From: a virus
IMG/VR virus record: IMGVR_UViG_3300031758_000424
Location: 1 to 28,965 of that record
Strand: one strand, 5' to 3'
Length of the DNA stretch: 28,965 nucleotides
Shown in pieces: positions 602 to 26,183 of this stretch. Positions within the stretch are counted from its first letter, which is position 1. Every line of letters starts with the position of its first letter. Under the pieces are notes generated by a model. That model saw only the letters and a program-made list of their open reading frames with translations, had not been told where the DNA came from and made no database searches. The position numbers and the translations under genes are program-made.

Positions 602-1675
602 TTATACTAATACTTCAGAATAAACTGTTTCTAACATTTTAGCAGATACTAAGTAAGGGTCACAATTTGAGGCTGGTCGTCTGTCTTCAAAATAACCTCT
701 ACCTTCAACCAAAGATTGTGCTGGAATTCTAATAGAAGTATCTCTAGTGCTATATCCATAACTAAATTCATGAATTCCTGATGTCTCATGTTCACCAGTA
801 AGTCTTTGTTCATTATGTAGACCATAAACCTGGATGTGTTCCATATGAGTTGATTCAAGCTTTGTCATTGTTTCTTTAATCAATTCGATACCACCATCTT
901 TTCTCATTTCTTTAGAAGAGAAATTGACGTGACAACCGGTTCCATTCCAATCTCCTTTAATTGGTTTCGGATGTAAAGATACGTTGACATTATGTTTTTC
1001 TGCAACTCTTTCCAAAATATATCTTGATATCCATAATTGATCAGAACCGTTCAAAGCAGTTACGGGGCCAATTTGATATTCCCATTGACCAAGTAAAACC
1101 TCAGCATTAATACCAGAAATATCTAAACCAATCTCTAAACACATATCCATGTGCTCTTCAACTATTTGTCTTCCAATTACAGTGTCAGCTCCGATTCCGC
1201 AATAATAATCACCTTGTGCTCTTGGTGTTTTACCAATTTCAAATCCAAGTGGAAGACCAACACCCTCACCAAATGGCAATCCTGGTTTATGAGTAAGTGT
1301 ATACTCTTGCTCCCAACCAAACCATGGAGACTCGTCTTTAGTTAAATTCGTAAGATTTAACTCATCTATAACATTAGATAAATTTCTTCTATTATTTGTT
1401 GGATGAGGAGTTCCATCTGGACTAAGTACCTCACAAAATACCAATTTATTAGGATACTCTCTAAATGGGTCTTTACAGACAAAAACTGGTTTTAGTAAAC
1501 AATCAGTGTTTTTCCCTTTTCCTGCCTCTGCTTGAAGAGTTGAACTTCCATCAAAAGACCACATTGCGTAATCCTCTGGATTATTTGTATCTGCTTTGTC
1601 AACAATTTTTGTTTTACTTCTGAGTTGTTGTGGCTCAGAACCATCTAACCAAATATACTCTAATTTAATTTTCAT
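602..1675 (-). CDS. Glutamine synthetase, type II (GSII)
   Basis: 357 residues, the normal full length for GSII, which joins ammonia to glutamate using ATP to make glutamine. Signature motifs appear in order: WSFDGSSTLQA (39-49), DPFR (69-72), WFGWEQEYTL (118-127), GDYYCGIGAD (155-164), AEVLLGQWEYQIGP (191-204), HPKPIKGDWNGTGCHVNFS (235-253), then HETSGIHEFSYG, RIPA and GYFEDRRPASNCDPY. These carry the glutamate, metal and ATP ligands, so the enzyme looks active. The RIPR usual in many eukaryotic enzymes reads RIPA, which I do not consider disabling. It stands alone between a bidirectional terminator and a divergent 74-base spacer. In a phage it is an auxiliary metabolic gene, probably taken from a bacterial host. 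It could support nucleotide and amino-acid synthesis during infection. Confidence 0.93.
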   Translation of the reverse strand: MKIKLEYIWLDGSEPQQLRSKTKIVDKADTNNPEDYAMWSFDGSSTLQAEAGKGKNTDCLLKPVFVCKDPFREYPNKLVFCEVLSPDGTPHPTNNRRNLSNVIDELNLTNLTKDESPWFGWEQEYTLTHKPGLPFGEGVGLPLGFEIGKTPRAQGDYYCGIGADTVIGRQIVEEHMDMCLEIGLDISGINAEVLLGQWEYQIGPVTALNGSDQLWISRYILERVAEKHNVNVSLHPKPIKGDWNGTGCHVNFSSKEMRKDGGIELIKETMTKLESTHMEHIQVYGLHNEQRLTGEHETSGIHEFSYGYSTRDTSIRIPAQSLVEGRGYFEDRRPASNCDPYLVSAKMLETVYSEVLV

Positions 1676-4039: not shown

Positions 4040-5761
4040 ATGGCAACTTATAACAATTTTGGTTCCACTCAACAAAATAATTCAAACTTTGCATTTGCTT
4101 CTAATTCTGCAGTAGAAAACAAAGGATTATTTTCTAGGATTCTCAGAACACTTTCTAACTATGGAATGAATTACGATGATATGATAATTCGTAATCAAGT
4201 TGGTATTGGTATAAATGAAGATCCATATGCGGCTAAAGGTAACTCGATGTATGATTTCTTTTCTCAAAGAGCAGTTGCGTCTGTTTTGAACAGAAAATCT
4301 ATACCTTATTTAGATAAAGCATATGCTGATAAAAGAAGAATATTAAGAGAATATTCAATCAAAGATGAAATAAGAGATTTTGTTTCTACAATTTGTGATG
4401 AATCTATTGTTTTCAATGATGATAGTGACTTTTGTGCTCCTAAATCTATTTCAAATGAATATTCTCAAGAGGTAAGAGACAAATATCAAGAATATTTTGA
4501 GAAAATTTATAACAAATTTGGATTTTCTGATAATATAACTGCTTGGAGTATGATGAAAGATTTTCTAATTGATGGTCATATTGCAATAGAAATAATTTTT
4601 GATGATAAAAAGAAAAACATTATTGGTTTTAATAGATTGAGACCTGACACTTTAGTTCCGGCATATGAACCAACTATAGGACATCTATGGATTCAGTTTC
4701 CTGAAGATCCTCAATTAAGAAGAATATTTTTAGATTCTCAGATTATTTATGTCTCCTACTCTACACAAAATGATTATTCAGAGACATCTTATGTTGAGGG
4801 TTTAATAAAGCCTTATAATCAATTAAAAATACTTGAACAAACAAGAATTATGTTCAATATAGTAAATGCGACTGTATATCAAAAATTCACGATTCCAATC
4901 AAAGGTTTATCAAGACAAAGAGCTGAGGAACAAATAGGTCAACTTATTCATGATTATTCAGAAGAAGTTGAATGGGATGATTCTTTAGGAACTTTGACTA
5001 TTAATGGCGCCAAGCATTTACCTTATAATAAACAAATATGGTTTCCTGAAGGTGATGCTGGAACTCCGAATATGGAATTAGTTTCTCCACAGGGTCATGA
5101 TTTGAATGATGAAACTATGCTATCTTGGTTTTATAAAGCTCTTAAAAGAGCCTCTAAGATACCTATGCAACGATTTGAGGCTGAGAATGGTGGTGGAAAT
5201 TTATTTGGAGACTCATCAGAAATGACTAGAGATGAAATTAAATTTCACAATTTCATTTCAAGATTACGTGCTAACTTTAAAGAATTGATAGTGAAACCTC
5301 TGAAACTACAGATGTTGATAGAGTTTCCTGAACTGAAAGATGATGAAGTTTTCACAAATCAGGTAGATATTCAATTCTATTCTAATCAACTATTTGAAGA
5401 TTGGAAGAAAATCAATAATCTGTCTAAAAGATCTGAGATTGTTGGAACTTTATTAGGAGTTATGAATGGTGAAAAACCTTATTTCCATATTGAATGGATT
5501 ATGGATAATGTATTCAAACTAACACCTGAACAGAAGGCTGAAAATGAAAGATATTGGGCTAGAGATGTGGCGAATGTCGCGGCTGGTGCAGCTGGTGCTG
5601 CTCCTGCAGAGGGTGGTGAGGCAGCTCCGGCTGAAGGCGGTGAGGCAGCTCCTGCGGAAGGTGGTGAAGCGGCTCCTGCTGAAGGTGAAGCTCCTGCTGA
5701 AGGTGGTGGAGAAGCTCCTGCTGAAGGTGGTGGAGAAGGTGGTGGAGAGTTTGAATTCTAA
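4040..5761 (+). CDS. Portal vertex protein, gp20-like
   Basis: 573 residues (T4 gp20 is 524). Twelve copies form the ring at one capsid vertex through which DNA is packaged and the tail joins. Features of the family are the central VEGLIKPYNQLKILEQTRIMFNI stem region, the GDAGTPNMELVSPQGHDLND segment and the wing/clip portion DEIKFHNFISRLRANF...LKLQML with DIQFYSNQLFEDWKK. The last ~55 residues are a low-complexity tail built from GEAAPAEG repeats, ending GGGEFEF, which is not part of the standard fold. The gene follows a terminator and a TTTAATATATA motif. Its 3' end overlaps the converging gene at 5758 by 4 bases. Confidence 0.92.
   Translation: MATYNNFGSTQQNNSNFAFASNSAVENKGLFSRILRTLSNYGMNYDDMIIRNQVGIGINEDPYAAKGNSMYDFFSQRAVASVLNRKSIPYLDKAYADKRRILREYSIKDEIRDFVSTICDESIVFNDDSDFCAPKSISNEYSQEVRDKYQEYFEKIYNKFGFSDNITAWSMMKDFLIDGHIAIEIIFDDKKKNIIGFNRLRPDTLVPAYEPTIGHLWIQFPEDPQLRRIFLDSQIIYVSYSTQNDYSETSYVEGLIKPYNQLKILEQTRIMFNIVNATVYQKFTIPIKGLSRQRAEEQIGQLIHDYSEEVEWDDSLGTLTINGAKHLPYNKQIWFPEGDAGTPNMELVSPQGHDLNDETMLSWFYKALKRASKIPMQRFEAENGGGNLFGDSSEMTRDEIKFHNFISRLRANFKELIVKPLKLQMLIEFPELKDDEVFTNQVDIQFYSNQLFEDWKKINNLSKRSEIVGTLLGVMNGEKPYFHIEWIMDNVFKLTPEQKAENERYWARDVANVAAGAAGAAPAEGGEAAPAEGGEAAPAEGGEAAPAEGEAPAEGGGEAPAEGGGEGGGEFEF
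5597..5746 (+). repeat. In-frame 24-base repeats (GEAAPAEG tail of portal)
   Basis: A 24-base unit encoding approximately GEAAPAEG is repeated about three times, followed by shorter AEGEAP and GGGEAPAEG variants. The copies differ at third codon positions (for example GCAGCTCCG and GCGGCTCCT). The stretch is clearly more GC-rich than the rest of the window. It encodes an acidic, flexible Ala/Pro/Glu/Gly tail. Confidence 0.85.
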
Positions 5762-9089: not shown

Positions 9090-11180
9090 ATGAAACCAGT
9101 TTTAATAGTAGAAAACTCAACTAATTCTCTTATTAGAGAAAATTCTTCTAGTAAGAAGGATTATATCTTAGGAGGTACATTCACGGAATTTGGTGTTAAG
9201 AATAGAAACGAAAGAATCTATACTGCAGATAAATTCCTTCCTGCCTTAGATGAATTAAACGAAAGAATGAATAGTTTAGGTGCTGTTTATGGTGAATTTG
9301 ACCACCCAGATGTTTTTGATACATCTTTGGCAAGAGCATCTCACACAATCACTAAAGCGCAATACATTAAAGAACAAAACTTAGTATCTGGTGAAATTAA
9401 ACTTTTATCAACTTATTGGGGTAAAGAGGCAAAGGCTTTGGTTGATGATGGTTGTCCAGTATTTGTATCATCAAGAGCAGCTGGTATCACTGAATCTGAT
9501 GGTTCTGTTTCTTTGAAAAAACTTTTCACATATGATATAGTAGCTGACCCAGGTTTTGCTTCTGCAAAAATGAGTGTTAAAGTTTTGAATGAGTCCTTAG
9601 GATACAATCCACAATCTAACTTTAGGATATATGAAATGTCCGACGAGTCTAAAATAAATGAATTATTCAACATGAACAAAAACGAATTCGTAACAAAAAA
9701 ACAGTTGACTGATTATTCACAATACTTAGTAAATGAGATTGCCTCTACTAAGAAAGAAGTCAAAAATGCAATTTCTAAAGGAAATATGAGTCCTAAAAAA
9801 TTAGAACAACTACTTGAGTATTATGAGGAGTTAAACGAGACAAATTCTAAAGTGGTAAAATACTTAGATTATTTAGCTGAGAAAATTCAAGTTGTTGTAA
9901 ATGAGAACAAATCTCTTAAATCTACGACTGAAAAATTAGTTAAACACAATGATTATTTAGCTGAAAACTTAGAAAAGGCTATTAATTACACAGAGTATGT
10001 TGCTGAAAATTTAGATAAAAATATTGAGTACTCAGAGTATTTAGCTGAGAATCTTGATAAGAATATTTCTTATTCTGAATATATCGCTGAAAACTTAGAC
10101 AAAAACATTTCTTATTCTGAATATTTGGCTGAAAACTTAGACAAAAATATTGCTTACTCTGAATATTTGGCTGAAAACTTAGACAAAAATATTGCTTACT
10201 CTGAATACATCGCTGAAAACTTAGATAAAAACATTGCTTATGCTGAGTATATAGCTGAACATGTTGATAATTCTATTGCTTATTCTGAGTATTTAGCAGA
10301 GCATGTTGAAGGTAATATTGCTTACTCTGAATACATCGCTGAACATTTAGATGATAATATTGCTTACTCTGAATACATCGCTGAAAGCTTAGATAAATCA
10401 ATTTCTTATCAAGGATTAATCGTTGAAAAATTAAATGGTGGTAAATTATTCGAATCAGAAGGTGCATTTCCTTCTTTAAACGCTGCTGGTTTTGAAATGG
10501 TTGAAGATGATGAAAAAGAAAATTCTTGGAATAAAGAAGATGATGAAGAAGCAGAATATAACATGAATGGTGTTCCAGCTGCTGAAGCGACTCACGTTCA
10601 TAATAAAGAGGAAGAAGAGGAAGAATGTGGTCCATCTTCTTACGAAGTAACAGGAAAAGACGATACTGAATTATCAGAATCTATTAATAAACTTATTGAA
10701 GAAGCTAAAAAACGTAAAGTTTCTGAAACTACTGACTTGAATTTCTTAAAGTTCTTAAACAAGTCACAAGTAGATAGCTTTTATGCATTATCAGACGAAG
10801 AACAGGAAACTGTAAAACTTCACATAAACGAAAGAAGTTATTTCACACAGAAAGATGTGTTAGGTCTGATCGCAGAAGCATTATCAACTAAGAACGAGAC
10901 TCTTGAAGAAAGAGTTATCAGATTGATGCCTGAAAACGTTAAGCCAGTCTGGAATCAGTTAAATGAGTCTTCTAAAAAATCATTGCTTTCTCAAGCAAGA
11001 CTTTATCCAGAAGATGTATTAAAAACTGAAGCACAAGTTGAGCATTTCTGGTTGACTAGAAATCTCAAAAAGAATGAATCAGTTACTAAGAAATTAGTTT
11101 CACATGAGGCACTTATCCAAGAAGATAAAATCTCAGACAATGAAGCTCAAGCAATCTTAGAAAGATTCAAAAATTTATAA
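9090..11180 (+). CDS. Prohead protease (gp21-like) fused to scaffold-like core region
   Basis: 696 residues. Residues ~22-170 match the T4 gp21 serine protease that matures the prohead: KNRNERIY (37-44), catalytic His in GEFDHPD (H72) and catalytic Ser in FVSSRA (S127/S128). A helical region follows with eleven 14-residue repeats (286-439, type YSEYLAENLDKNIA), an acidic linker (about 473-515, EEEEEE) and a C-terminal helical domain. In T4, protease (gp21) and scaffold (gp22) are separate genes. Here they appear as one chain. Each repeat contains (L/I/V)-A-E-(N/H/S), which fits the (L/I)-x-E cleavage rule of T4 gp21, as do LIVE|N (6-9) and LIRE|N near the N-terminus. The chain may therefore cut itself up during maturation. 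It immediately precedes the major capsid gene. Confidence 0.88.
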   Translation: MKPVLIVENSTNSLIRENSSSKKDYILGGTFTEFGVKNRNERIYTADKFLPALDELNERMNSLGAVYGEFDHPDVFDTSLARASHTITKAQYIKEQNLVSGEIKLLSTYWGKEAKALVDDGCPVFVSSRAAGITESDGSVSLKKLFTYDIVADPGFASAKMSVKVLNESLGYNPQSNFRIYEMSDESKINELFNMNKNEFVTKKQLTDYSQYLVNEIASTKKEVKNAISKGNMSPKKLEQLLEYYEELNETNSKVVKYLDYLAEKIQVVVNENKSLKSTTEKLVKHNDYLAENLEKAINYTEYVAENLDKNIEYSEYLAENLDKNISYSEYIAENLDKNISYSEYLAENLDKNIAYSEYLAENLDKNIAYSEYIAENLDKNIAYAEYIAEHVDNSIAYSEYLAEHVEGNIAYSEYIAEHLDDNIAYSEYIAESLDKSISYQGLIVEKLNGGKLFESEGAFPSLNAAGFEMVEDDEKENSWNKEDDEEAEYNMNGVPAAEATHVHNKEEEEEECGPSSYEVTGKDDTELSESINKLIEEAKKRKVSETTDLNFLKFLNKSQVDSFYALSDEEQETVKLHINERSYFTQKDVLGLIAEALSTKNETLEERVIRLMPENVKPVWNQLNESSKKSLLSQARLYPEDVLKTEAQVEHFWLTRNLKKNESVTKKLVSHEALIQEDKISDNEAQAILERFKNL
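9945..10406 (+). repeat. Eleven tandem 42-base repeats coding for 14-residue scaffold units
   Basis: Eleven back-to-back in-frame units run from HNDYLAENLEKAIN to YSEYIAESLDKSIS. Several central units are nearly identical in DNA sequence, which suggests recent expansion by unequal crossing-over or slippage. An isolated related unit (KYLDYLAEK) lies about 20 codons upstream. Not CRISPR: there are no spacers, and the units stay in frame. Confidence 0.95.
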
Positions 11181-11264: not shown

Positions 11265-12989
11265 ATGTCACACATTAGAATAGACAAATCTAAAGCTATC
11301 AAGAAATGGTCTCCAGTTCTTGAGAACATGGGTGTTACTGGTGAGAGAATTGATTGGATGTCAGAATATGCTGAGTTCCACTCAATCAACGAGAACGCTT
11401 ATGTGAATGCTTCTAACGTTGCTGGTATGGGTGGTGTTGTTGCTCCACAACCTTCAACTTTAGCTGGTTCAACAATTGGTAACAATTGGGCTGGTTTTGG
11501 TGGTTCAAATGGTTCAGGAGATGTAGGTCAAAACTTACTTCCTGTAGCTATGAAAATTGCTGCTCAAACAATCGGTCTTGACCTTGTTGCTGTTAAACCA
11601 TCTCCAGGTCCGAAAATCGACCTTCTTTACATCGACTTCCAATACGATGATACTCGTTTAGGAAATGAAGATGAAAGACCACAAGTTTTCAAAATTGCTC
11701 CTAAAACAGCAGGATTGACTTCTACTAAATTAACAGCAGTTATCGCTGGTCTTAGAGCTCAGTTAGCAGCTTCTTCTCCAGTTATTAGCGAAACTACAGG
11801 TGGTTTAAATGGTAGAATTTGGAATAACATCGATACAGGTGCTGCAATTACTTCAGAGCCATCTGATAAAGAAAATAAAGTTGAATTTTTAGGATTCTCA
11901 AGAATTGATGGTTATCCAATGTTCAGAGCTTACAGACAATTCAACACGTCTCATACAGCGGTTGGTTCTGCAGCTACAACTTGGGCTTTTGATACAACAA
12001 GAAATACATTTGATTCTACAACGTCTATGGCTTCTCAAATCATTGCTTTAGGTGGTACTGCTTTAGGTGGTGAGCCTGCAATCGAATTGGTTTCTGCGTT
12101 AGAAGATCATATCCCTGGTTTTTCTGCAAACTGGAACTCTGGTTCAACTTCTCAATTCTCTGGACAATATCCAATGGATAGAGATCAAGATGACTCAAGA
12201 TATTCTGGAGTTATCGGACCAAAAATCTCTTCTAAAACTATCGCAGTTGGTACTATTGAAGTATCTTCAGCTCTTAGAAGAACTGAAATTGAAGATATCA
12301 AAGCTAACACAGGTATGGATATCGTTCAAAAAATGGAATCTATTCTTGTTAATGAATTATCTCAAACAATTTCTAAGCAAATCGTTGCTAAGATTTTTGA
12401 AATGGGTGATCTTAACAGAACTAGCGCGCCTTTAGCTGGATTAACTTTCTCAACTAATATTGCTAGCCAAACAATCTTTGACTTAGATACTACTTATGTA
12501 ACTAGTACAGTTGGTGGTGAAACTACTCACGCCGTACAAAGAAAACTTATCACTAAAATTGCTCACGCTTCTAACTACATTGCAACTGAAGGTCGTGTAG
12601 GTCCAGCTCAATACCTTATCACAAACGGGGGTCTTGCTGCTGCTTTAGCTGATATTTCTGGTTACACTATTAACCCAGTTAAGTCTAAGTTAAACGGACA
12701 AGGTCAATTATATCCTGTTGGTTCAATCGGTGATATTTCTATCTACGTTGATCCATATATGAGATATAATGATAACAGAATCGTTCTTGGTAGAAAGAAC
12801 AATCCTGATCAACCAGGTATCATTTTCGTACCTTATTTAATGGCACAATCAATCTCTTTGATTTCTGAGGCTACTTTTGCTCCAAGAATGTTGTTGAGAT
12901 CTAGATATGCTGTTGCTGAAGTTGGTTGGTTCCCACAAAAACAGTTTATGACTATTAAAGTTTCTGATTCTTATGGATTATTAAACTAA
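11265..12989 (+). CDS. Major capsid protein, gp23-like
   Basis: 574 residues (T4 gp23 is 521). It builds the hexamers of the head shell. The N-terminus has KWSPVLENMG (14-23), as in T4-type capsid proteins. SINE|NAYVNASNVAG (40-54) aligns in position and style with the T4 maturation site FLTE|AEIGG, predicting cleavage after E43. Later family features are SSALRRTEIEDIKANTGMDI with ILVNELSQTISKQIV (polymerase-like spine helix), ISIYVDPYMRYNDNRIVLG, PGIIFVPYLMAQSI and MLLRSRYAVAEVGW near the end. Codon choice is more uniform (GGT, GCT, AAC, CTT) than in neighbours, as expected for the most abundant virion protein. It has its own promoter-like leader and ends at a strong terminator. Confidence 0.94.
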   Translation: MSHIRIDKSKAIKKWSPVLENMGVTGERIDWMSEYAEFHSINENAYVNASNVAGMGGVVAPQPSTLAGSTIGNNWAGFGGSNGSGDVGQNLLPVAMKIAAQTIGLDLVAVKPSPGPKIDLLYIDFQYDDTRLGNEDERPQVFKIAPKTAGLTSTKLTAVIAGLRAQLAASSPVISETTGGLNGRIWNNIDTGAAITSEPSDKENKVEFLGFSRIDGYPMFRAYRQFNTSHTAVGSAATTWAFDTTRNTFDSTTSMASQIIALGGTALGGEPAIELVSALEDHIPGFSANWNSGSTSQFSGQYPMDRDQDDSRYSGVIGPKISSKTIAVGTIEVSSALRRTEIEDIKANTGMDIVQKMESILVNELSQTISKQIVAKIFEMGDLNRTSAPLAGLTFSTNIASQTIFDLDTTYVTSTVGGETTHAVQRKLITKIAHASNYIATEGRVGPAQYLITNGGLAAALADISGYTINPVKSKLNGQGQLYPVGSIGDISIYVDPYMRYNDNRIVLGRKNNPDQPGIIFVPYLMAQSISLISEATFAPRMLLRSRYAVAEVGWFPQKQFMTIKVSDSYGLLN

Positions 12990-13064: not shown

Positions 13065-13448
13065 ATGAAATATTTAAAATATTTTGAATCAAAAAAAGTT
13101 AAATTTCCTGACATCAAAAAAATAGAAGTTGATGGTTATTTAATAATGGTTGGTCGAGACGCTAAATCTAATGACTTTTTAACCTTTAATACAGCAGAAG
13201 ATGAAGATATATGGATGCATGTCAAAGGCGTTCCTGGAAGCCATGTTGTAATTAGAGTCAGAGAAAATTTACCAACACCTGAGATATTGAAATATGCTGC
13301 GGAATTAGCTAAAAAAAATAGCAAAGCTGCTAAAGAGCCATCTGTAAAAGTTGTATATTGTCAAAGAAAGTTTGTTAAGAAGGAGCCAAATATGAATGAT
13401 GGTCAAGTAAAAGTTGATTATCTAAATTCAGAAGAAATAACAATTTGA
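13065..13448 (+). CDS. Stand-alone NFACT-R domain protein (RqcH/NEMF-related)
   Basis: 127 residues. The NFACT-R domain (formerly DUF814) is the RNA-binding part of RqcH/Rqc2/NEMF, which act on stalled large ribosomal subunits. Matches: GRDAKSNDFLTFNTA (30-44), DEDIWMHVKGVPGSHVVIR (46-64), EILKYAAELAKKNSKA, VVYCQRKFVKKEPN and a final DGQVKVDYLN. Cellular RqcH is about 550-600 residues with extra NFACT-N, HhH and coiled-coil parts. Here only NFACT-R is present. The N-terminus MKYLKYFE|S resembles a capsid-targeting peptide, so the protein may be packaged and injected. It could mimic or block host ribosome quality control. That role is inferred. It is the first gene after the capsid terminator, with a promoter motif 5 bases before its ATG. 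Confidence 0.85.
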   Translation: MKYLKYFESKKVKFPDIKKIEVDGYLIMVGRDAKSNDFLTFNTAEDEDIWMHVKGVPGSHVVIRVRENLPTPEILKYAAELAKKNSKAAKEPSVKVVYCQRKFVKKEPNMNDGQVKVDYLNSEEITI

Positions 13449-16705: not shown

Positions 16706-16729
16706 AAGTCCACAAAAGTGGACTTTTTT
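16706..16729 (+). terminator. Terminator of tmRNA gene
   Basis: AAGTCCAC and GTGGACTT form a perfect 8-bp stem around AAAA, with a run of T after it. It begins 9 bases after the tmRNA discriminator base. Confidence 0.88.
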
Positions 16730-16750
16730 GTTTTATATAGTATAATAAAT

Positions 16751-17236
16751 ATGACTATTGAGCAATTTAGAGGTAAATATTATTTTTTATCAAATTTTTA
16801 TGAATCAAAAATTGAATTTCAGGGAATTACCTATCCTACAGTTGAGCATTTTTATGTTGCTATGAAATCTAATTCGGATCAAATGTTAAATGGAAAATAT
16901 TATACATCGGCTGACTTTAGAGAAATGATTTCTAAAATAAAAGAACCAGGTGTGGTAAAAAAAATAGGTCAAAAAATAAAAGTTCGCAAAGATTGGTCTG
17001 AAAAAAAAATTGAAATTATGAATTTTGCAATCAGAGAAAAATTCAAAGACGAAAATCTCGCAGAACTACTAAAGTTGACGGGTGATGCTAAAATTGTCGA
17101 GGTCAATTTATGGAAAGATACTTTTTGGGGCGTCTTCAATGGTAAAGGCGAAAATCATTTAGGTAAAATATTAATGAAAGTAAGAGATGAAATCAACGGC
17201 ATACAAAAAACCGGATTAGAACAAATATTAAAATAA
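16751..17236 (+). CDS. NADAR (YbiA-like) N-glycosidase family protein
   Basis: 161 residues from the ATG at 16751. An upstream TTG would place the start inside the terminator. Family marks: FRGKYYFLSNFY (6-17), YPTVEHFYVAMKS (28-40), and the C-terminal WKDTFWGVFNGKGENHLGKILMKVRDEI. NADAR proteins cleave N-glycosidic bonds. Members have been shown to remove ADP-ribose from guanine in DNA, reversing DarT-type toxins, and others act on riboflavin intermediates. In a phage, counter-defence against DNA ADP-ribosylation is the most attractive role, but this is inferred. It has no packaging-like N-terminus, so it is probably made after infection. It is 9 bases from the methyltransferase gene and likely co-transcribed. 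Confidence 0.85.
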   Translation: MTIEQFRGKYYFLSNFYESKIEFQGITYPTVEHFYVAMKSNSDQMLNGKYYTSADFREMISKIKEPGVVKKIGQKIKVRKDWSEKKIEIMNFAIREKFKDENLAELLKLTGDAKIVEVNLWKDTFWGVFNGKGENHLGKILMKVRDEINGIQKTGLEQILK

Positions 17237-18187: not shown

Positions 18188-18417
18188 TGGCTGTTAAACT
18201 TCAACCTAATGTATTTAATGTGAATAGTTCATCTGGTGATTCTGTTCTTAGAATAGAGCCAGATGGATATTGTGTCATAACTAAATTAGCGCTCTTAGAT
18301 GATGTAACCGGTAATAAATGGGAAATAAAAATATCAAATGGTGAATTAATAGTTGAGCCGATTGAATTAGAAGATAAAAGAGAATATAAACTTAATAAAG
18401 TACTTAAAAATGATTGA
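18187..18417 (+). CDS. Small hypothetical beta-rich protein
   Basis: 76 residues. The middle (NVFNVNSSSGDSVLRIEPDGYCVITK) alternates short strands and turns, resembling the shaft-start segments seen at the N-termini of some phage fibre proteins, but it is too short to assign. It shares 1 base with the methyltransferase stop and 8 bases with the next gene, and sits in the 16751-18742 operon. Confidence 0.65.
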   Translation: MAVKLQPNVFNVNSSSGDSVLRIEPDGYCVITKLALLDDVTGNKWEIKISNGELIVEPIELEDKREYKLNKVLKND

Positions 18418-18742
18418 ACATTTAGATAGAATTGAAAAGTTAGGTTTTACAATAAATTTAAATTGGAATAAATCAATTGATATTATTTATGACACTGAAC
18501 GACCATTGGATTTTAGAATTCTATTTTGTGGATATGATTCGTTTTTAGAACCATCATTTGAAGATATAGTTGAGACTACCTGTGATTTCTTTTATATGTG
18601 GTATAATAAAAATTTAGAAACTCTAAAAGACTACGAATTTGATACAACAGACTCAAATTTTGATAAATTGATTGATACTGGTTTAGGTGATATTACTAAA
18701 CAAGTCTACAGAGATTTTAATTTAGATAATTTATTAGACTAA
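18410..18742 (+). CDS. Hypothetical protein
   Basis: 110 residues, acidic (many Asp), soluble, with no recognised motif. Its start overlaps the preceding stop, and its end overlaps the end of the converging nucleotidyltransferase gene by 4 bases. No terminator separates the two converging units. Confidence 0.65.
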   Translation: MIEHLDRIEKLGFTINLNWNKSIDIIYDTERPLDFRILFCGYDSFLEPSFEDIVETTCDFFYMWYNKNLETLKDYEFDTTDSNFDKLIDTGLGDITKQVYRDFNLDNLLD

Positions 18743-19797
18743 GAATTGACTTTATTGTAAAGTTCTAAATATATTTCTTTACAATTTTGTTGAGTTAATT
18801 TTCTTAGCATACTCTCTGACTCTTCGCTTGACAACCATCTTTTGTATTTAGAAGTGTCTGTTCCTTCAAGTTTAGCATTTTGTTGAAGATAATATTTTAA
18901 AGTTTCGTATAAACTATATCTCAGATTTTGTCTATATATTGAGTCTAATCTTAAGCCAAATTTATTTTTCAATTGTTCAAAAGAGGTAGTAGGGTTATTC
19001 ATTACTTGGTCAATTTCATGTCTGCTAATTTTGAATACTGAATACATTGGCATTTGAACTCGTTGAATTTTTAAAAATTTATTAGTTTGTAGTTTTATAG
19101 GTGTTGAAGTTCCTATAACAATTCCTTCAATTGGTGATACTTTATCAACTACAGACACAATTACTTCATCTAGTAAATCACCTATCATATCTTTTAGTTT
19201 ACCTACTTTATAATCGTCTTTAAAAGTCATTGATATGAATTCATTTCTTAAACCACCTTCCCAAACTTTTTTGAAATCTTCAAAGGCTTGATTTTTATTG
19301 ATATTAATTTTGATATCTTTTTTTGTCAATAGTTTTATTCCTGTATTTAATTTTTTTCTTATTTCTTCTGCCAGCTCCTCAGATAGATTACCAGTGTATT
19401 CAATGTATATTTTATCTACATTTTTATATTGTATGTAATCGTGATTAGAACGAGGATTTAGTATCTCAAATCCCCAAGTTTGATCTGGTAACTTTTGGTT
19501 GGCAATTATGTCTATGAGTGGTCTAGTGATGTCTGATCCCCATCTTGAGTGTGATGCATTTCTTCCAGATTGCCCTGATAAAATTTGGTCTTTTGTATTT
19601 ACCATGACAAAATTATCTTTAATTGTTACGGTAAGATGTTGTCCAGCTATTTTTTCGGTTATATCTATATTTTTAGAATTGTATAAAAATTGGTCTACAA
19701 AATCAACTATATCACCTACACTCGCGTTTCTAAATCTAGTAGGACTTACTGTATTCTCTAATATTAATTTGAATTCTGAAAATTTCTTTATAATCAT
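18739..19797 (-). CDS. Ligase-like covalent nucleotidyltransferase with packaging-like N-terminus
   Basis: 352 residues. The motif order fits the DNA/RNA ligase and capping-enzyme superfamily: motif I EKIAGQHLTV (48-57, K49 the likely AMP-accepting lysine), SGRNASHSRWG (77-87, motif Ia-like), WGFEIL (108-113, motif III), IEGIVIG (223-229, motif IV) and FLKIQR (241-246, motif V). Motif I reads K-x-A-G, not K-x-D-G, which is unusual. The C-terminal ~100 residues are helical and would bind nucleic acid. Whether it seals DNA or RNA cannot be told. The N-terminus MIIKKFSEFKLILE|N matches the packaging-type peptide. A ligase delivered at infection could repair host-inflicted nucleic-acid cuts. That is inferred. 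Its ATG lies 4 bases from a TTTAATATATA motif. Confidence 0.7.
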   Translation of the reverse strand: MIIKKFSEFKLILENTVSPTRFRNASVGDIVDFVDQFLYNSKNIDITEKIAGQHLTVTIKDNFVMVNTKDQILSGQSGRNASHSRWGSDITRPLIDIIANQKLPDQTWGFEILNPRSNHDYIQYKNVDKIYIEYTGNLSEELAEEIRKKLNTGIKLLTKKDIKININKNQAFEDFKKVWEGGLRNEFISMTFKDDYKVGKLKDMIGDLLDEVIVSVVDKVSPIEGIVIGTSTPIKLQTNKFLKIQRVQMPMYSVFKISRHEIDQVMNNPTTSFEQLKNKFGLRLDSIYRQNLRYSLYETLKYYLQQNAKLEGTDTSKYKRWLSSEESESMLRKLTQQNCKEIYLELYNKVNS

Positions 19798-19801
19798 ATT
19801 A

Positions 19802-19812
19802 TATATATTAAA
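19802..19812 (-). promoter_or_regulatory. Putative late promoter (TTTAATATATA), 4 bases from ATG
   Basis: On the minus strand: TTTAATATATA, then TAAT, then the ATG at 19797. It lies in the 37-base divergent gap shared with the Nudix gene at 19835. Confidence 0.55.
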
Positions 19813-19834
19813 TATTTTTTTGTATATTTGAATT

Positions 19835-20404
19835 ATGAATACTAAATTCTCAGGTGGTGGTATATTACCAATTGTTAAGATAAATGACGACTTATACTTT
19901 TTAACATTTGGTTCAAAAAGAGGAGTTTTATCAGATGCTGGTGGAAAATGTGACTTTGGGGAAAGTATTGAAAAAACTTGTGTCAGAGAGTTTTATGAAG
20001 AAAGTTGTAAGTTATTTGACATAAGTGTATCTGATATATCCAATCATAAATTTATTAATATTAATGCTGGTCGGACTTTCTATAGAAGTTATTTGCCTTT
20101 TTTCAAGTTCGATATATCTCAAAATTTATTTTCTAAAAATAGAAATATTTTAAAATCAAATAAGTGTTCTTATCAATTTTTAGAAAAAAGTGAAATGATA
20201 TTAGTTCCTGTAAATTCCAAATTTGAGAGGCTGAATTCAAATTCAACTAAAATCTATACTACACAAGATATATCTGGTCAATTGCGATTAGTAAATAGAA
20301 GGCTTTATAAATTAATTAGAGATTTCCAAAAATCAAATATAAATACTGAAGAAATAATTTTAGAGAAAAAAAAATTAGGTGGATTAGTAACTTACTCAAA
20401 ATAA
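19835..20404 (+). CDS. Nudix hydrolase
   Basis: 189 residues. The Nudix box begins at G37: G-x5-E43-x7-R51-E52-x2-E55-E56, read in GKCDFGESIEKTCVREFYEE. The last box glycine is replaced by Cys. The fold cleaves nucleoside diphosphates linked to another group. The substrate (ADP-ribose, NAD, dNTP, capped RNA or others) cannot be told. There is no packaging-like N-terminus, unlike the second Nudix protein at 23376. Monocistronic, ending at a bidirectional terminator. The 37-base spacer upstream also carries TGTATATTTG, which may be its promoter. Confidence 0.82.
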   Translation: MNTKFSGGGILPIVKINDDLYFLTFGSKRGVLSDAGGKCDFGESIEKTCVREFYEESCKLFDISVSDISNHKFININAGRTFYRSYLPFFKFDISQNLFSKNRNILKSNKCSYQFLEKSEMILVPVNSKFERLNSNSTKIYTTQDISGQLRLVNRRLYKLIRDFQKSNINTEEIILEKKKLGGLVTYSK

Positions 20405-20436
20405 AAAACCTTTGAATTGAATCAAAGGTTTTTTTA
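20403..20436. terminator. Bidirectional terminator
   Basis: AAAAAACCTTTGA pairs with TCAAAGGTTTTTT around a 6-base loop, with T-rich sequence after it. It lies between the converging Nudix gene and the minus-strand gene ending at 20438. Confidence 0.88.
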
Positions 20437-20437
20437 T

Positions 20438-20839
20438 TTATTTTTTCCAACTTGGAACAAACTTATCAGAGTATTTTCGAGTGTATGCGATATTTGGTCT
20501 TTGGTGTTTACGCGATGGATAGTTAGGACTTCCTATAGCTCTTCTAATAAGTGGTCTCATAGAGTCATGTATATGCATACTTAAGTCATCCCAAACCTCA
20601 TCTTGATTTCGGTCACCTTCTGGTACATATCCGAATTGTTGCATAAATTCTTCGATATGGTCTATTGTATAAAAAAGATCATGTAGAGCTGTATCAGATC
20701 CGGAATCTGCAATTCTATCAATTTCTGCAAACATTTTATCAGCCGATTCTCTGTTACTCTCAGTTCCTTTACCAAATCCTGGTGAGTAGAAGTGTTTGGT
20801 TGTATCTTCACTTTCATTAAATCTTTTTAAATGTTTCAT
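20438..20839 (-). CDS. Protein with packaging-like N-terminus
   Basis: 133 residues beginning MKHLKRFNE|SED. The centre is helical and acidic (ADKMFAEIDRIADSGSDTALHDLFYTIDHIEEF), and the C-terminus is basic (PSRKHQRPNIAYTRKYSDKF). No family recognised. A single gene between a bidirectional terminator and a promoter motif 23 bases upstream of its ATG. Confidence 0.7.
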   Translation of the reverse strand: MKHLKRFNESEDTTKHFYSPGFGKGTESNRESADKMFAEIDRIADSGSDTALHDLFYTIDHIEEFMQQFGYVPEGDRNQDEVWDDLSMHIHDSMRPLIRRAIGSPNYPSRKHQRPNIAYTRKYSDKFVPSWKK

Positions 20840-20862
20840 AGTTTCATTTTTTTTTTATAAAG

Positions 20863-20873
20863 TATATATTAAA
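20863..20873 (-). promoter_or_regulatory. Putative late promoter (TTTAATATATA)
   Basis: Exact motif on the minus strand, 23 bases before the ATG at 20839 with an A-rich leader between. Confidence 0.5.
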
Positions 20874-20886
20874 TTAAAATCTTATT

Positions 20887-20897
20887 TTTTATATATA
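20887..20897 (+). promoter_or_regulatory. Putative late promoter (TTTTATATATA), 4 bases from ATG
   Basis: TTTTATATATA, GATT, then ATG at 20902. The string ATATATAGATTAT is shared with the major capsid promoter region. Confidence 0.5.
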
Positions 20898-20901
20898 GAT
20901 T

Positions 20902-23376
20902 ATGAAATTTATAAGAGATTTTTCCAAATTTAGAGAATTAAGAATCAATGAGGCTTTAGAGTCGGGTCAGTTTTTAGCTTACCATAGAACAAGATTAGTC
21001 GAACAAAGTTATATAGTCAATGTAGAACCTGATCCAAATGTAAATTTTTATCAACAATTTGCTGAGTCTATGATTTTTGGTTTAACTAAAAATACAAAAG
21101 AGTATCAATTAGCAATCAGTAACAATATTAAATTACTAAGTGATATGAATCCCGATATCAAATTGGATGATAGAGGTTTTCCAATAGTTAAAATAGGTGA
21201 TAAAATTACAACACAGGATCCAAGAATAATTTCTCAAGGTTTCAGAGCAGGTGCAGGAGATTTTTATGGTGTTGGTTTGTATACTTGTTATGAGTTTGAT
21301 GATCAGATTAGAGACTTTGATGGTGATGGTAAACCTGATATGAGAGGATATGGACAAAATATTGTTGAATTTAGAGTCGATAACACTGGTAAATTTTTAA
21401 TACTTGATATGACTGAAGGAAATAATCAAGCAAAAAAAGTTTGGGGAGCTAATCACACACTTATTGACCAATTGAAAAAAATAATGGGTGGTAAGTTTTT
21501 AAATTTCTATAATAAGAATAAAGAACTACTGAATGGTTTTAACGAAATCTTAGTAAAGACAAAAGTAACAACTCCAGGTGGTTTTGTTGAAGAGTTAGAA
21601 AAGGACAAAAAGGGTAGATTTTTGACTGGTCCGATTGCTCTAAGATTGTGTAAAATGGATGGATTTATATCATTAGTTGATGGTATTTCATTTACAGGTG
21701 GTAATGATGGAAGAGTATTGGTCATTTATGATGCAGACTTGGCTAAACCGACAAGATATACATCAGATGATGGGAGAACTTGGAATCCAATGTCTAAGTT
21801 AGAGTACCAATACGAAAGAGTAAGAGTGGGTAATAAAGACATTCTTCAGTGTAAAATCATAGACAATGATAAAGAGTTGATACAAATAGACCCGAATAGA
21901 CCGGTTCAATGGATAAAAAGTTTGGATATTCCATCAATTCTCAAAGATAGTGAAAAGACGGTCAAACTTTTTTCACGTATAAACATTTCAAGTATTGGAT
22001 CAAAGAAGATATTTACTGAATTGATTTCGGATTTATCAAAGAGCAAACCACAGGTATTAGATAATATTATAAAAAGACTCTATGATTTACCTTTAACAGA
22101 TAGAAATTTAGAAAAAAGTGAATTTATAAATTATTTATCTAATCTGATTATTTTTTTATTAGAGTTTGTAAAAATGTCTGGTCAAAAATCAGATTTGCTC
22201 AAAAAGAAAATTGAACAAATATGTGAGTATTTTTCTAAAAATAGTGAAGACATTTCATTTCCAATCTCAGTTATAACATCTATCTATTCTGAAATAGAAG
22301 GAGGTAGTGAAAGTGTTGAAAAATTCAGAGAAGTATTAAAAAATAATTTTTTAAAATCTCATGAATTATATTCTGAGACTTCTGAATATGACGGTGATGT
22401 ATTTGTTAAAATGTTAAATGAAATGAAAATTTTACCAAAAGAAGTTGTTGATAAAAAAATTGACGATTCCTTAGATAAATTATCAAAATTATTAATTAAT
22501 ACAGAATTGACGGACTCGAACCCAGATTTCTTAGGTACAACTACAAATGCGAAAAGATTCAATTTAGTAGATTACAAATTGAGTCCTTTTAAAAGGTTTA
22601 CCTATTTGATGACTTTTAGTTTTGATGGATTGGCTCAAAAATATATTGATGTTTTTTGTAAATTGTTACAAAAAAAATTAATTGTATTTCATAAAGGATT
22701 TAATCGACTGTATGACTATCGAGCTGATAAAAAAGCGAGTTTCTCTTCTTTAAATTTGATAGAGTGCTTTAAACAAACTCCTACTGATTACACAGGAAAT
22801 AATCTAATTATAAAAGTTATATCTAATCCAAGTAGGCTTAATGATGAATCCGTGGACATAATTGCTGATGCTATAATTTTATATTTAATTGCAATGAAAG
22901 AGGAGCATATTGGTCGAGGTTCAATCAAGGGTCAAAATTTTGTTATTGATATAATAAAAGGAAATAAGATATTTGATAGAATTAAAGAAAAATTATTAAA
23001 GTTAAAAAATGGAGAAAAATTGGAAATATCAGGGGAACAATTGAGATTTGGCTTCGGAGTAGTTTATAGTGAGTTCTCTAAATATGTCAAGCTTGGTGAA
23101 GAATTCGAACCAGATTTGGACTACGACTACATAGCCGATAGAATATTTAAATCTATGTATGGACCAAGTTACAAAAAAGATGAATTATTTGATAAAATGT
23201 CTGAATTAAGAAACGATAAAGATTTGCAAAAAGTAAAATTAGCCTTTGGTAAAAGAAAGGGAATGATAGGTAAAGAATATGATTTAGATTATTGGATTAA
23301 AGACGAACTCAGTAAAGATGATTTACAAAAATTGAACAACATATTAAAAGAAAAAGGAATCAATTATCAATTCTAA
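20902..23376 (+). CDS. Large putative ADP-ribosyltransferase with packaging-like N-terminus
   Basis: 824 residues. It opens MKFIRDFSKFRELRINE|ALES, a packaging-type peptide with an I-N-E cut. Directly after comes FLAYHRT (24-30), then GDFYGVGLYTCYEF (119-132). A His in a Y-H-x-T strand followed by G-x-G-L-Y-T is the pattern of the H-Y-E class of ADP-ribosyltransferases. H28 and Y127 would be the first two catalytic residues. I cannot place the third (E/Q) with confidence; the domain probably ends near VLVIYDADLAKP (about 275). The remaining ~540 residues are helical, without motifs I know. T4 packages and injects the ADP-ribosyltransferase Alt, so this could be a functional counterpart. The next gene's ATG shares a base with its stop. 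Confidence 0.6.
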   Translation: MKFIRDFSKFRELRINEALESGQFLAYHRTRLVEQSYIVNVEPDPNVNFYQQFAESMIFGLTKNTKEYQLAISNNIKLLSDMNPDIKLDDRGFPIVKIGDKITTQDPRIISQGFRAGAGDFYGVGLYTCYEFDDQIRDFDGDGKPDMRGYGQNIVEFRVDNTGKFLILDMTEGNNQAKKVWGANHTLIDQLKKIMGGKFLNFYNKNKELLNGFNEILVKTKVTTPGGFVEELEKDKKGRFLTGPIALRLCKMDGFISLVDGISFTGGNDGRVLVIYDADLAKPTRYTSDDGRTWNPMSKLEYQYERVRVGNKDILQCKIIDNDKELIQIDPNRPVQWIKSLDIPSILKDSEKTVKLFSRINISSIGSKKIFTELISDLSKSKPQVLDNIIKRLYDLPLTDRNLEKSEFINYLSNLIIFLLEFVKMSGQKSDLLKKKIEQICEYFSKNSEDISFPISVITSIYSEIEGGSESVEKFREVLKNNFLKSHELYSETSEYDGDVFVKMLNEMKILPKEVVDKKIDDSLDKLSKLLINTELTDSNPDFLGTTTNAKRFNLVDYKLSPFKRFTYLMTFSFDGLAQKYIDVFCKLLQKKLIVFHKGFNRLYDYRADKKASFSSLNLIECFKQTPTDYTGNNLIIKVISNPSRLNDESVDIIADAIILYLIAMKEEHIGRGSIKGQNFVIDIIKGNKIFDRIKEKLLKLKNGEKLEISGEQLRFGFGVVYSEFSKYVKLGEEFEPDLDYDYIADRIFKSMYGPSYKKDELFDKMSELRNDKDLQKVKLAFGKRKGMIGKEYDLDYWIKDELSKDDLQKLNNILKEKGINYQF

Positions 23377-23867
23377 TGATTAAAACATTTTCACAATTTA
23401 TTAAAGAATCTAAAGATTGGAGTAATTCAGTTACTGCTGTCATTGCTCTTTTCAATAAGAGTGGTCAATTATTAGCACTTAAAAGAGGAATGACTGCTCC
23501 TTGGAAACCAGGACACTGGAATATTACTGGTGGTGTGGTTGGTGACCATAATCTTGATGAAAAACCAAAAGAAGCTGCTTTAAGAGAGGTTTTAGAAGAA
23601 ACAGGGTTAACGCCAACAAATGTTCAAGATTGGGGTGTGATTGATACAAAAGGTCATCCAGATTCTGCTTGTGGATTTATTTATTATTTTACTGGCAAAG
23701 TTGATAGTTTACCTACCTCATCAGACGGTGAAAATTCTGAGTGGAAATTTGTAAATAAAGAAGATTTAGATAGAGTTTACTGGGTTCCTTTTTTAACAGA
23801 TTTTACTGGATGTGACTTATCCGGTGCAAAGTTTAAGAAATCTTTTCTACACGAAGTTTGGTCTTAG
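23376..23867 (+). CDS. Nudix hydrolase with packaging-like N-terminus
   Basis: 163 residues with a fully canonical Nudix box, G56-x5-E62-x7-R70-E71-x2-E74-E75-T-G-L, within GDHNLDEKPKEAALREVLEE. The upstream strands (AVIALFNKSGQLLALKRG) and WKPGHWNITGG are typical of small nucleotide-processing Nudix enzymes. It starts MIKTFSQFIKE|SKDW, close to T4 internal-protein leaders. It overlaps the preceding gene by 1 base, so it is made together with the putative ADP-ribosyltransferase. An ADP-ribose or NAD-related substrate is thus an attractive guess, no more. Confidence 0.87.
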   Translation: MIKTFSQFIKESKDWSNSVTAVIALFNKSGQLLALKRGMTAPWKPGHWNITGGVVGDHNLDEKPKEAALREVLEETGLTPTNVQDWGVIDTKGHPDSACGFIYYFTGKVDSLPTSSDGENSEWKFVNKEDLDRVYWVPFLTDFTGCDLSGAKFKKSFLHEVWS

Positions 23868-24127
23868 AATAGTTTTTGTAATTTAATTTTTAAATCACCG
23901 CTACCCTTTATCAACCTATGAAATACACCTTTTGGTATAGTGATTTCCCCAGAAATTATTTTCGGTAGTTCATTATCAATTTGTATCATCCAATCTGTAT
24001 CTTTAATAGATTCAATTATACGATTTTCGTAATCTCTGTGCCACATGAACTCTCCAGAATCTGTTTCTTGATTAAATTCTCTGATAAAAGTATTATCTGA
24101 TATTTTAGTTTCTTTGAAAGGTAACAT
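23864..24127 (-). CDS. Small cupin-like protein
   Basis: 87 residues. The pattern FMWHRDYENR, then WMIQIDNELP, then ISGEITIPKGVFHRLIKGSGDLKIKL is a compact single cupin-type barrel with two conserved His (in WHRD and FHR) that may bind metal. Similar small proteins occur in many large phages without known function. There is no packaging peptide. Its start shares one base with the stop of the gene upstream, and its stop overlaps the converging Nudix gene by 4 bases. Confidence 0.65.
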   Translation of the reverse strand: MLPFKETKISDNTFIREFNQETDSGEFMWHRDYENRIIESIKDTDWMIQIDNELPKIISGEITIPKGVFHRLIKGSGDLKIKLQKLF

Positions 24128-24615
24128 TATTTTGTTATTAATTTTTCACCATCAAAATATCCGTAATTAAACTTTACTGGTATGTTACCATTAGAAAATT
24201 CTTGATAATTGTCCAGTAAATCATTTTCAATTGTGTCTATGCTAACTCTTCTTTCGGACGATATTTCACCAAATTCTGATTTAGGCATTGCTAATAAAAA
24301 ACATCCTAATTGATTTCTATGTGGAGAGATACCATCAATCATATTAGAAAGTAGAGTGTAAAGATTTGATTTATTAGTTATGGCTGTTGTGCCACTAAGT
24401 CCAGTGCCTAAATTGAATTTAAACTGTGTTTCAAATATACTTTTTGCAAATTCTGGTGAAGTTACATGTGTTAGGTAGTGATTTGAATCAGGTAAAGAAT
24501 CTATTTTAGATTTTAATTCTAATTTTAGTAAATCTCTACTAAAATTTTCCACATCTTTAGATTCTATTATTGGAAAATTAAAATTATATTCAGTATATGT
24601 TTTTAAATGTTTCAT
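24127..24615 (-). CDS. Protein with packaging-like N-terminus, possibly ADP-ribosyltransferase-like
   Basis: 162 residues from the ATG at 24615. A longer frame from 24663 exists, but the internal start gives the MKHLKTYTEY leader common in this region and begins 4 bases after the upstream stop. The leader ends PIIE|S. The body has YLTHVTSPEFAKSIFETQF, then GLSGTTAIT, and ends IPVKFNYGYFDGEKL. H-x-T-S followed by a G-x-x-G-T-T element loosely recalls small ADP-ribosyltransferase folds. The match is weak, and no full catalytic triad can be set out. Confidence 0.6.
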   Translation of the reverse strand: MKHLKTYTEYNFNFPIIESKDVENFSRDLLKLELKSKIDSLPDSNHYLTHVTSPEFAKSIFETQFKFNLGTGLSGTTAITNKSNLYTLLSNMIDGISPHRNQLGCFLLAMPKSEFGEISSERRVSIDTIENDLLDNYQEFSNGNIPVKFNYGYFDGEKLITK

Positions 24616-25614: not shown

Positions 25615-25824
25615 TTATTTTTTTTGAAACATATTATCTAAAACTTGATACATAGCGTCTATTACTCCATAAGAGTCAATTCCAAATTGACCTGTATATT
25701 TATCTACGATTTGCATCATATCTTTTTCTAAACTAGACCATTTGTCTTTTTCTTCAGTTTTTCTATTATTTTTTAGAACTTCATCCCAGTCAAATTCTTC
25801 GTTAAACTTTTTTAGATGTTTCAT
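25615..25824 (-). CDS. Small protein with packaging-like N-terminus
   Basis: 69 residues beginning MKHLKKFNE|EFDWDE. Helical and acidic, with WSSLEKDMMQIVDKYTG and VIDAMYQVLDNMFQKK. No family recognised. Its start overlaps the stop of the gene at 25821 by 4 bases, which indicates coupling. Confidence 0.68.
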   Translation of the reverse strand: MKHLKKFNEEFDWDEVLKNNRKTEEKDKWSSLEKDMMQIVDKYTGQFGIDSYGVIDAMYQVLDNMFQKK

Positions 25825-26183
25825 TTTTCGTTTATTTTTTTAAGCACTTCTGCGCATTTTTCGAATTCTTCTTGTGATTCTAATTCTTTAAGATAGTTTC
25901 TCAGTTGATTTCTGTCACATAGCTCTAATTTTAATTTAAATCTTATGTCAACAACGTCTTTCATATCTTTTGCTGTATGGTCTATTATTTTATTCACAAT
26001 ATCTCTGTCAAATGGTGACATTTTTTCAAAATCTGACCAGTCATAAATTTGATTATCATTGAGAAAATTTAAAATATTTGTCAATGCGTCTTGTACTCTA
26101 TCTGATTTAGATTTAGATTTTTTTTTGATTTTTTTAAAAAATTCTTCATTAATAAAGTTCATATACGTATTTAACCTTTTCAT
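25821..26183 (-). CDS. Small protein with packaging-like N-terminus
   Basis: 120 residues beginning MKRLNTYMNFINE|EF, one of the clearest matches to the T4-type leader with an I-N-E cut. A lysine-rich stretch (KKIKKKSKSKS) follows and then helices (DALTNILNFLNDNQIYDWSDFE). No family recognised. First gene of the minus-strand unit 26183-23864, with the promoter motif 4 bases upstream of its ATG. Confidence 0.7.
   Translation of the reverse strand: MKRLNTYMNFINEEFFKKIKKKSKSKSDRVQDALTNILNFLNDNQIYDWSDFEKMSPFDRDIVNKIIDHTAKDMKDVVDIRFKLKLELCDRNQLRNYLKELESQEEFEKCAEVLKKINEK

What the first reader, a model, noticed from the sequence alone, without database searches (positions are those of the whole stretch)
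20902..23376. 824-residue injected ADP-ribosyltransferase candidate with a large unknown C-terminus
Seen: leader with INE cut, then AYHRT and FYGVGLYT. Known: T4 injects Alt, which modifies host RNA polymerase. Inference: functional analogue with a different fold class and a ~540-residue unexplained helical region that may choose the target.
Basis: partly seen in the sequence, partly recalled or inferred. Interest (0 to 1): 0.62.

Follow-up and report, generated by a model that had tools for sequence, protein, structure and literature searches.

The report
Head-packaged ADP-ribosyltransferase of a huge phage
A giant bacteria-infecting virus carries a gene for a previously unclassified ADP-ribosyltransferase-like enzyme whose short N-terminal tag matches tags on many other proteins of the same virus, suggesting that the enzyme is loaded into the virus head and injected into the host as infection starts.

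Summary
ORF 20902-23376 (824 aa) has a leader ending RINE, then AYHRT, FYGVGLYT and a long, variable C-terminus. No Pfam, PHROG or NCBIfam model and none of 50,697 phage records match it. A motif scan of IMG/VR found about 20 relatives that share this N-terminal domain and differ in their C-termini. A family model (pLDDT 82, pTM 0.82) matches ART-superfamily structures almost exclusively (AcrIF11, MbcT, PARPs, exotoxin A), though TM-scores are low (0.25-0.49). The active-site pattern is H-Y-[D/E], a different ART clade from T4 Alt (R-S-E); the usual catalytic Glu is not conserved and Asp269 is the candidate. The window belongs to a Mahaphage-type huge phage with gp20, gp21-type protease-scaffold and gp23. 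Its MCP carries a conserved INE site, the tripeptide of the ART leader. About 113 of 853 ORFs of a 634-kb relative carry a similar leader (about 9 expected), and in four phages the ART leader resembles the leaders of its own phage. I judge a packaged, injected ART likely (0.6). Activity, target and packaging are untested; NAD hydrolysis instead of transfer is the main rival. A new ART family; the genome-wide leader class may be the larger find.

The parts
20902..20952 (+). N-terminal leader MKFIRDFSKFRELRINE (residues 1-17), predicted head-targeting propeptide with a cut after E17
   Evidence: [LI]xE aligned in 18 of 18 relatives; 6 of the 10 most similar N-termini come from its own contig, which holds 8.8% of the pool, p=7e-5; INE is also the conserved site in the MCP
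20953..21816 (+). ART-like domain, residues 18-305
   Evidence: Family alignment, model pLDDT 82 / pTM 0.82 of relative L029, PDB hits almost all ART superfamily
20983..20991 (+). motif 1, H28-R29-T30
   Evidence: H and T invariant in 18 sequences; lies on the first strand of the family model
20992..21225 (+). insertion of about 80 residues between motif 1 and the ISQGF segment
   Evidence: Absent from most relatives, with a counterpart in L036-L040
21262..21285 (+). motif 2, FYGVGLYT (residues 121-128, Y127)
   Evidence: YGxGxY invariant; 0 of 100 shuffles contain the extended pattern
21706..21711 (+). motif 3, D269-G270 at the start of the last core strand, candidate third catalytic residue
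   Evidence: Asp in all members but one, which has Glu; no conserved Glu in the PARP position
21817..23373 (+). C-terminal region of ~520 residues, predicted helical, family-variable
   Evidence: Model (low confidence); no profile match to the C-termini of L036-L040
9090..11180 (+). gp21-type protease fused to a scaffold-like repeat region
   Evidence: phrog_207 E=6e-30, PF03420 E=0.002; repeated [LI]AE sites 14 residues apart
11265..12989 (+). gp23-type major capsid protein with INE site at residues 41-43
   Evidence: PF07068 E=1e-27; [ILM]xE-N conserved in 7 of 8 MCPs
4040..5761 (+). gp20-type portal protein
   Evidence: PF07230 E=6e-58
23376..23867 (+). Nudix hydrolase directly downstream, with a T4-like leader MIKTFSQFIKE
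   Evidence: Nudix models up to E=1e-6, below their curated cut-offs; leader match
25821..26183 (-). small protein with leader MKRLNTYMNFINE
   Evidence: Strict leader match
20438..20839 (-). neighbouring protein with leader MKHLKRFNE
   Evidence: Leader class

Best explanation
The gene encodes an ADP-ribosyltransferase of the H-Y-[E/D/Q] clade that is made late in infection, carried into the prohead by its N-terminal leader, trimmed after INE-17 by the phage's gp21-type protease, kept inside the mature head and injected with the DNA. In the host it uses NAD+ (H28 and Y127 binding NAD, D269 as the likely acidic residue) to mono-ADP-ribosylate one or a few host macromolecules. The long C-terminus probably selects or holds the target. 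Shown computationally: the ORF, the family, the ART-like fold, the leader class and the shared INE site. Inferred: timing, packaging, cutting, injection, catalysis and target choice.
For: Fold: the family model gives PDB hits whose first 37 ranks are ART-superfamily entries, headed by AcrIF11 at E=7.5e-4 with probability 1.00. BFVD hits are PolyVal ARTs and PARP-like viral proteins. A Pfam-confirmed ART-PolyVal protein aligns in register over the H-x-T and GxGxY motifs, P=0.005. Leader: [LI]xE in 18 of 18 relatives. A relative has MITFRKFLVE directly before its domain. The ART leader resembles those of its own phage in four phages, p=7e-5, 3.5e-6, 1e-3/5e-5 and 4e-4. 113 of 853 ORFs of LR745206 carry the leader against ~9 expected, 20 of 108 in G002 against 0.7. 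T4 targeting depends on CTS residues 4 and 7 and processing on 8 and 10 (PMC9026906); the enriched positions here include hydrophobic 4 and aromatic 7. The MCP has the same INE. Precedents: T4 Alt is packaged and injected (PMC9026906); AcrIF11 works with H-F-H-D (PMC12421852). Purifying selection.
Against: TM-scores are 0.25-0.49 and no sequence-profile hit to a solved ART is significant. The usual catalytic Glu is not conserved. The full-length model of this very protein is poor, so the fold is carried over from a relative at about 29% identity. No gp21-type protease was found in many relatives' contigs, mostly fragments. The leader test is not significant in G004, G006, G014 and G023. In L025/L028 the leader would be only MLNE. 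No proteomic data.
Confidence: 0.6

Rival explanations
1. It is an injected or intracellular NAD+-consuming enzyme (NADase or NAD+ phosphorylase) of ART fold that drains host NAD+ and does not modify a target macromolecule.
For: MbcT is the second and third PDB match and a NatRT toxin-antitoxin complex is also listed. Iyer et al. note that H-Y-[EDQ] ARTs include NADases and phosphorylases. The usual catalytic Glu is missing.
Against: Draining NAD+ early would also harm the phage. The long variable C-termini suggest partner recognition. The best match is AcrIF11, a protein mono-ART.
Confidence: 0.2
2. The ART is real but not packaged: the leader is a different sorting or expression feature, and the protein acts inside the cell in which it is made.
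For: No virion data. Some relatives have almost no leader (MLNE). More than a hundred proteins share the leader in a relative, which would be a very large cargo. The ART lies in an accessory island.
Against: The leader ends in the site of the phage's own MCP, resembles T4 targeting sequences in position and residues, and differs by phage in step with other proteins.
Confidence: 0.2
3. The domain is an ART-derived pseudoenzyme that binds NAD+ or ADP-ribose, or only proteins, without catalysis.
For: No conserved Glu; Asp269 sits before the strand and not in the usual position.
Against: H, Y and the acidic residue are all kept across divergent members, with dN/dS 0.11-0.14; AcrIF11 shows that Asp can serve.
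Confidence: 0.12

Closest known systems
T4 Alt (R-S-E clade ART, head-packaged, injected)
   Same: ART superfamily; N-terminal propeptide ending in a gp21-type site (T4 Alt starts MELITELFDE); phage with gp20, gp21, gp23
   Different: Different active-site clade (H-Y-[D/E] here); no detectable sequence relationship; large variable C-terminus; encoded in an accessory island
ART-PolyVal (PF18760) of phage polyvalent proteins
   Same: H-x-T and GxGxY in register; BFVD fold hits; two such proteins, also behind [LI]xE leaders, occur in relative contig G004
   Different: No Pfam match for any of 18 family members; the ART-PolyVal protein has Glu before the last strand, this family Asp
AcrIF11 anti-CRISPR mono-ART
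   Same: Best PDB match (6kyf); diphtheria-like with Asp in place of Glu (H-F-H-D, PMC12421852)
   Different: AcrIF11 is a small single domain; no sequence similarity; acts on Csy1 of the type I-F complex
PARP/diphtheria-type catalytic domains
   Same: H-x-T, G-x-G-x-Y, order of strands; structural hits to PARP1, 2, 3, 4 and tankyrases
   Different: Canonical third Glu absent; about 10% identity in the structural alignments

Membership tests
ART superfamily | Split beta-sheet ART fold | tested here: met
   Model pLDDT 82, pTM 0.82; first 37 PDB hits are ART-superfamily entries. Caveat: TM-scores below 0.5, and the model is of a relative
ART superfamily | Significant sequence-profile match to a known ART | tested here: inconclusive
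   No Pfam/PHROG/NCBIfam hit; hhalign P=0.005 to one ART-PolyVal protein; PARP10 only at E of about 1
H-Y-[EDQ] ART clade | His in strand 1 and Tyr in GxGxY | tested here: met
   H28 and Y127 invariant in 18 sequences
H-Y-[EDQ] ART clade | Acidic (or Gln) third residue at the last core strand | tested here: inconclusive
   D269, Asp or Glu in all members, but shifted from the PARP position
ART-PolyVal PF18760 | Match above the gathering score | tested here: not met
   No match for any of 18 members
T4 Alt / VIP2 (R-S-E) | R-S-E active site | tested here: not met
   The conserved residues are H, Y, D
T4-type head-packaged protein with CTS | Short N-terminal leader ending in [LI]xE in a phage with a gp21-type protease | tested here: met
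T4-type head-packaged protein with CTS | Present in the virion in cut form and delivered to the host | not testable with these tools
   Needs virion mass spectrometry
Active ADP-ribosyltransferase | NAD+-dependent transfer to a target | not testable with these tools
   Biochemistry required

The most novel reading that the evidence does not exclude
Mahaphage-type huge phages use one short N-terminal address tag, read by the head-assembly core and cut by the head protease, to load on the order of a hundred different proteins into each head. These would include this new ART family, an Acb1-like/2H protein and an RNA ligase, so that a large set of counter-defence and takeover enzymes enters the host with the DNA.
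Probability: 0.4. Interest if true: 0.85.

Novelty: new variant of a known kind. Interest (0 to 1): 0.62.

Why it matters
Head-packaged ARTs have been proposed to be widespread beyond T4 (Iyer et al. 2022, PMC9503650), but the evidence there rests mainly on gene neighbourhood and fusions. Here is a new ART family that carries a readable delivery tag. The tag gives a sequence rule with which candidate injected proteins can be listed in the largest known phages, whose genes are mostly of unknown function. If correct, it points to dozens of untested host-takeover and anti-defence enzymes and to a directly testable prediction: the N-termini found in virions.

Tried and rejected
tblastn of the protein, its domain and three relatives against 50,697 phage records: no match. 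First DNA pattern miswritten, one scan wasted. Genome collection: alignments A2 and A3 not conserved enough for a scan; a pattern scan gave two bacterial MAG stretches that a family HMM does not recognise, taken as chance. Full-length structure model of poor quality, fold search meaningless. C-terminus against C-termini of the 920-aa relatives: no similarity. NADAR (16718-17236) as antitoxin or eraser partner of the ART: rejected as a specific pair, because ART-less relatives also carry it. Neighbour 24127-24615 (HVT motif) as a second member of this ART family: no profile support. A simple count of [LI]xE in N-termini was only weakly informative in G002, so leader classes were tested separately. 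Promoter scan: no more hits than in shuffles.

Full report
1. Observation. The ORF at 20902-23376 is intact, 824 codons, with leader, AYHRT and FYGVGLYT as described. The reverse strand is not open. Pfam, PHROG and NCBIfam give nothing significant, and 50,697 phage records give no tblastn match.

2. A family exists. A degenerate DNA pattern built from the YGxGxYTxYE...Q motif matched 12 stretches of IMG/VR. A profile-guided scan gave 25 loci, about 15-20 distinct proteins. They share a domain of about 200 residues: xVYHRT, G[FY]KxGxG, YGxG[LIF]YTTYDLxSQ, M..YG, and a last segment GI.FTG..DG.VLV.Y. The pieces behind this domain differ almost completely between members: helical regions, repeats of the kind STDKDLIATKIID (L020), NGTW repeats (L021), and others. 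Several phages carry two or three copies in tandem or apart (G005, G006, G012, G023). Among close relatives the ART part is more conserved (dN/dS 0.11-0.14) than the C-terminus (0.19-0.24), and in the tandem pair of L020 the C-termini reach 0.73.

3. Fold. A model of the domain of relative L029 with 18 sequences reached pLDDT 82 and pTM 0.82. In the PDB the first 37 hits are ART-superfamily entries: AcrIF11 first (E=7.5e-4, probability 1.00), then MbcT, PARP4, PARP2, exotoxin A domain III, PARP1, PARP3, NatRT, tankyrases, TreX and Tpt1. In BFVD the hits include PolyVal ARTs, an iridovirus PARP-like protein and a MuF-fused protein. TM-scores are only 0.25-0.49. His of strand 1 (H28) and Tyr of GxGxY (Y127) are invariant. 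In place of the usual Glu there is Asp269, or Glu in one member, directly before the last core strand. AcrIF11 is a precedent for Asp: its key residues are H-F-H-D and D115A is inactive (PMC12421852). A Pfam-confirmed ART-PolyVal protein of relative contig G004 (E=2.8e-14) aligns in register, P=0.005. The conclusion of an ART fold is therefore strong at family level and carried over to the window protein by homology (about 29% identity, all key residues kept).

4. The phage. The window encodes gp20-type portal, a gp21-type protease fused to a scaffold-like repeat region, and gp23-type MCP. The MCP is 75-76% identical to those of uncultured 634.8-kb and 642.4-kb phages and about 53% to that of a 735.4-kb phage. 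These sizes match the largest genomes of Al-Shayeb et al. 2020, which belong to the Mahaphage clade with predicted Bacteroidetes hosts (PMC7162821). Gene order is kept over most of the window, but the ART and its neighbours (about 18410-24600) are an island: in LR745206 only about 270 bases separate the flanking orthologues. The family profile finds no ART in five huge uncultured phage genomes, a Lak phage and Tenacibaculum phage PTm1.

5. The leader. T4 internal proteins are targeted to the prohead by a 10-residue N-terminal sequence; targeting depends on residues 4 and 7 and processing on 8 and 10 (PMC9026906). Jumbo phages also cut at sites such as TFE (PMC5694885). In LR745206 the N-termini show strong enrichment for K2, H/Y3, L4, K5, F/Y7, F10 and E11, and 113 of 853 ORFs fit a simple leader pattern against about 9 expected from internal Met positions. 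In 77% of these the first Glu falls at positions 8-12, against 32% of other ORFs, followed most often by Ser or Asn. In the 111-kb contig that contains the window, 20 of 108 ORFs fit against 0.7 expected. The ART leader MKFIRDFSKFRELRINE belongs to this class. Neighbouring leaders include MIKTFSQFIKE (Nudix), MKRLNTYMNFINE and MKHLKRFNE. Across the family [LI]xE stands at the same place in 18 of 18 members. In four of the phages the ART leader is most similar to leaders of unrelated proteins of the same phage, for example MKIIITESQLNRLNE beside MKIIITESQLKKLIKNNLNE in G005, and MITFRKFLVE beside MRTFKKYLQE in G012. In four others the test is not significant. A leader that follows the phage and not the enzyme is hard to explain as part of the ART fold. 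The MCP site [ILM]xE-N is conserved in seven of eight MCPs, as INE in the window, which is the tripeptide of the ART leader.

6. How it most likely works. Late synthesis, targeting by the leader, trimming after INE-17 by the gp21-type protease, injection with the DNA, then NAD+-dependent modification of a host molecule chosen with help from the C-terminus. The leader and the ART motifs are supported by computation; the rest is inference by analogy with T4 Alt. The main rival is NAD+ breakdown instead of transfer, because MbcT and NatRT are among the structural matches.

7. What is known. Iyer et al. [quoted passage not shown] They list N4-like, PART, ORF28, p0068, Alt/VIP2 and Mod families. 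I could not match this family to one of these by sequence, and it is absent from Pfam and PHROGs. No paper found in the held library describes the leader class in huge phages; this is not proof of absence.

8. Breadth. In LR745206 leader-bearing proteins include one with 2'-5' RNA ligase-type/Acb1-like plus exonuclease domains and one T4 RNA ligase 1 family protein. Relative contig G004 carries two ART-PolyVal proteins and further H-x-T proteins behind leaders such as MIKLKDILLE and MTKLKILLEQVLKE. This suggests delivery of many counter-defence enzymes by one tag, which is the most novel reading and remains to be tested.

Noticed in passing
LR745206.1 genome-wide (loci L112-L143): About 113 of 853 ORFs share an N-terminal leader (K2, H/Y3, L4, F/Y7, E8-12, then S/N) against about 9 expected: a candidate genome-wide head-packaging tag.
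   Followed up: partly
window 9090-11180: Protease fused to a scaffold-like region made of ~14-residue repeats, each with an [LI]AE site, as if the scaffold carried serial cleavage sites for its own protease.
   Followed up: partly
window 18410-24600: Accessory island with the ART, two Nudix-like genes and a ligase-like protein, replaced by about 270 bases in LR745206.
   Followed up: yes
window 16718-17236: NADAR-family protein (TIGR02464 above cut-off), conserved in ART-less huge phages, so not a dedicated ART partner.
   Followed up: yes
window 24127-24615 (-): Leader MKHLKTYTEY followed by a short protein with HYLTHVT and a Gly-rich segment, possibly a second diverged ART-like protein; no profile support.
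   Followed up: partly
window 13065-13448: Leader-bearing stand-alone domain resembling the C-terminal part of RqcH/fibronectin-binding protein EfbA (NF038240 E=1e-17, below its full-length cut-off).
   Followed up: no
L134:8257-9573 (-) and L135:10485-11747 (+): Leader-bearing proteins of LR745206 with 2'-5' RNA ligase/Acb1-like plus exonuclease domains, and with a T4-type RNA ligase domain: candidate injected counter-defence enzymes.
   Followed up: partly
G004 contig (L059-L061), e.g. L061:1909-3003: Cluster of several H-x-T ART-like proteins behind [LI]xE leaders, two of them ART-PolyVal by Pfam.
   Followed up: partly
L021:8829-11158: Two tandem family members whose C-termini consist of NGTWxxGTW repeats.
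   Followed up: no
window 602-1675 (-): Sequence looks like a glutamine synthetase; orthologues at 73% in two huge phages; family not tested here.
   Followed up: no
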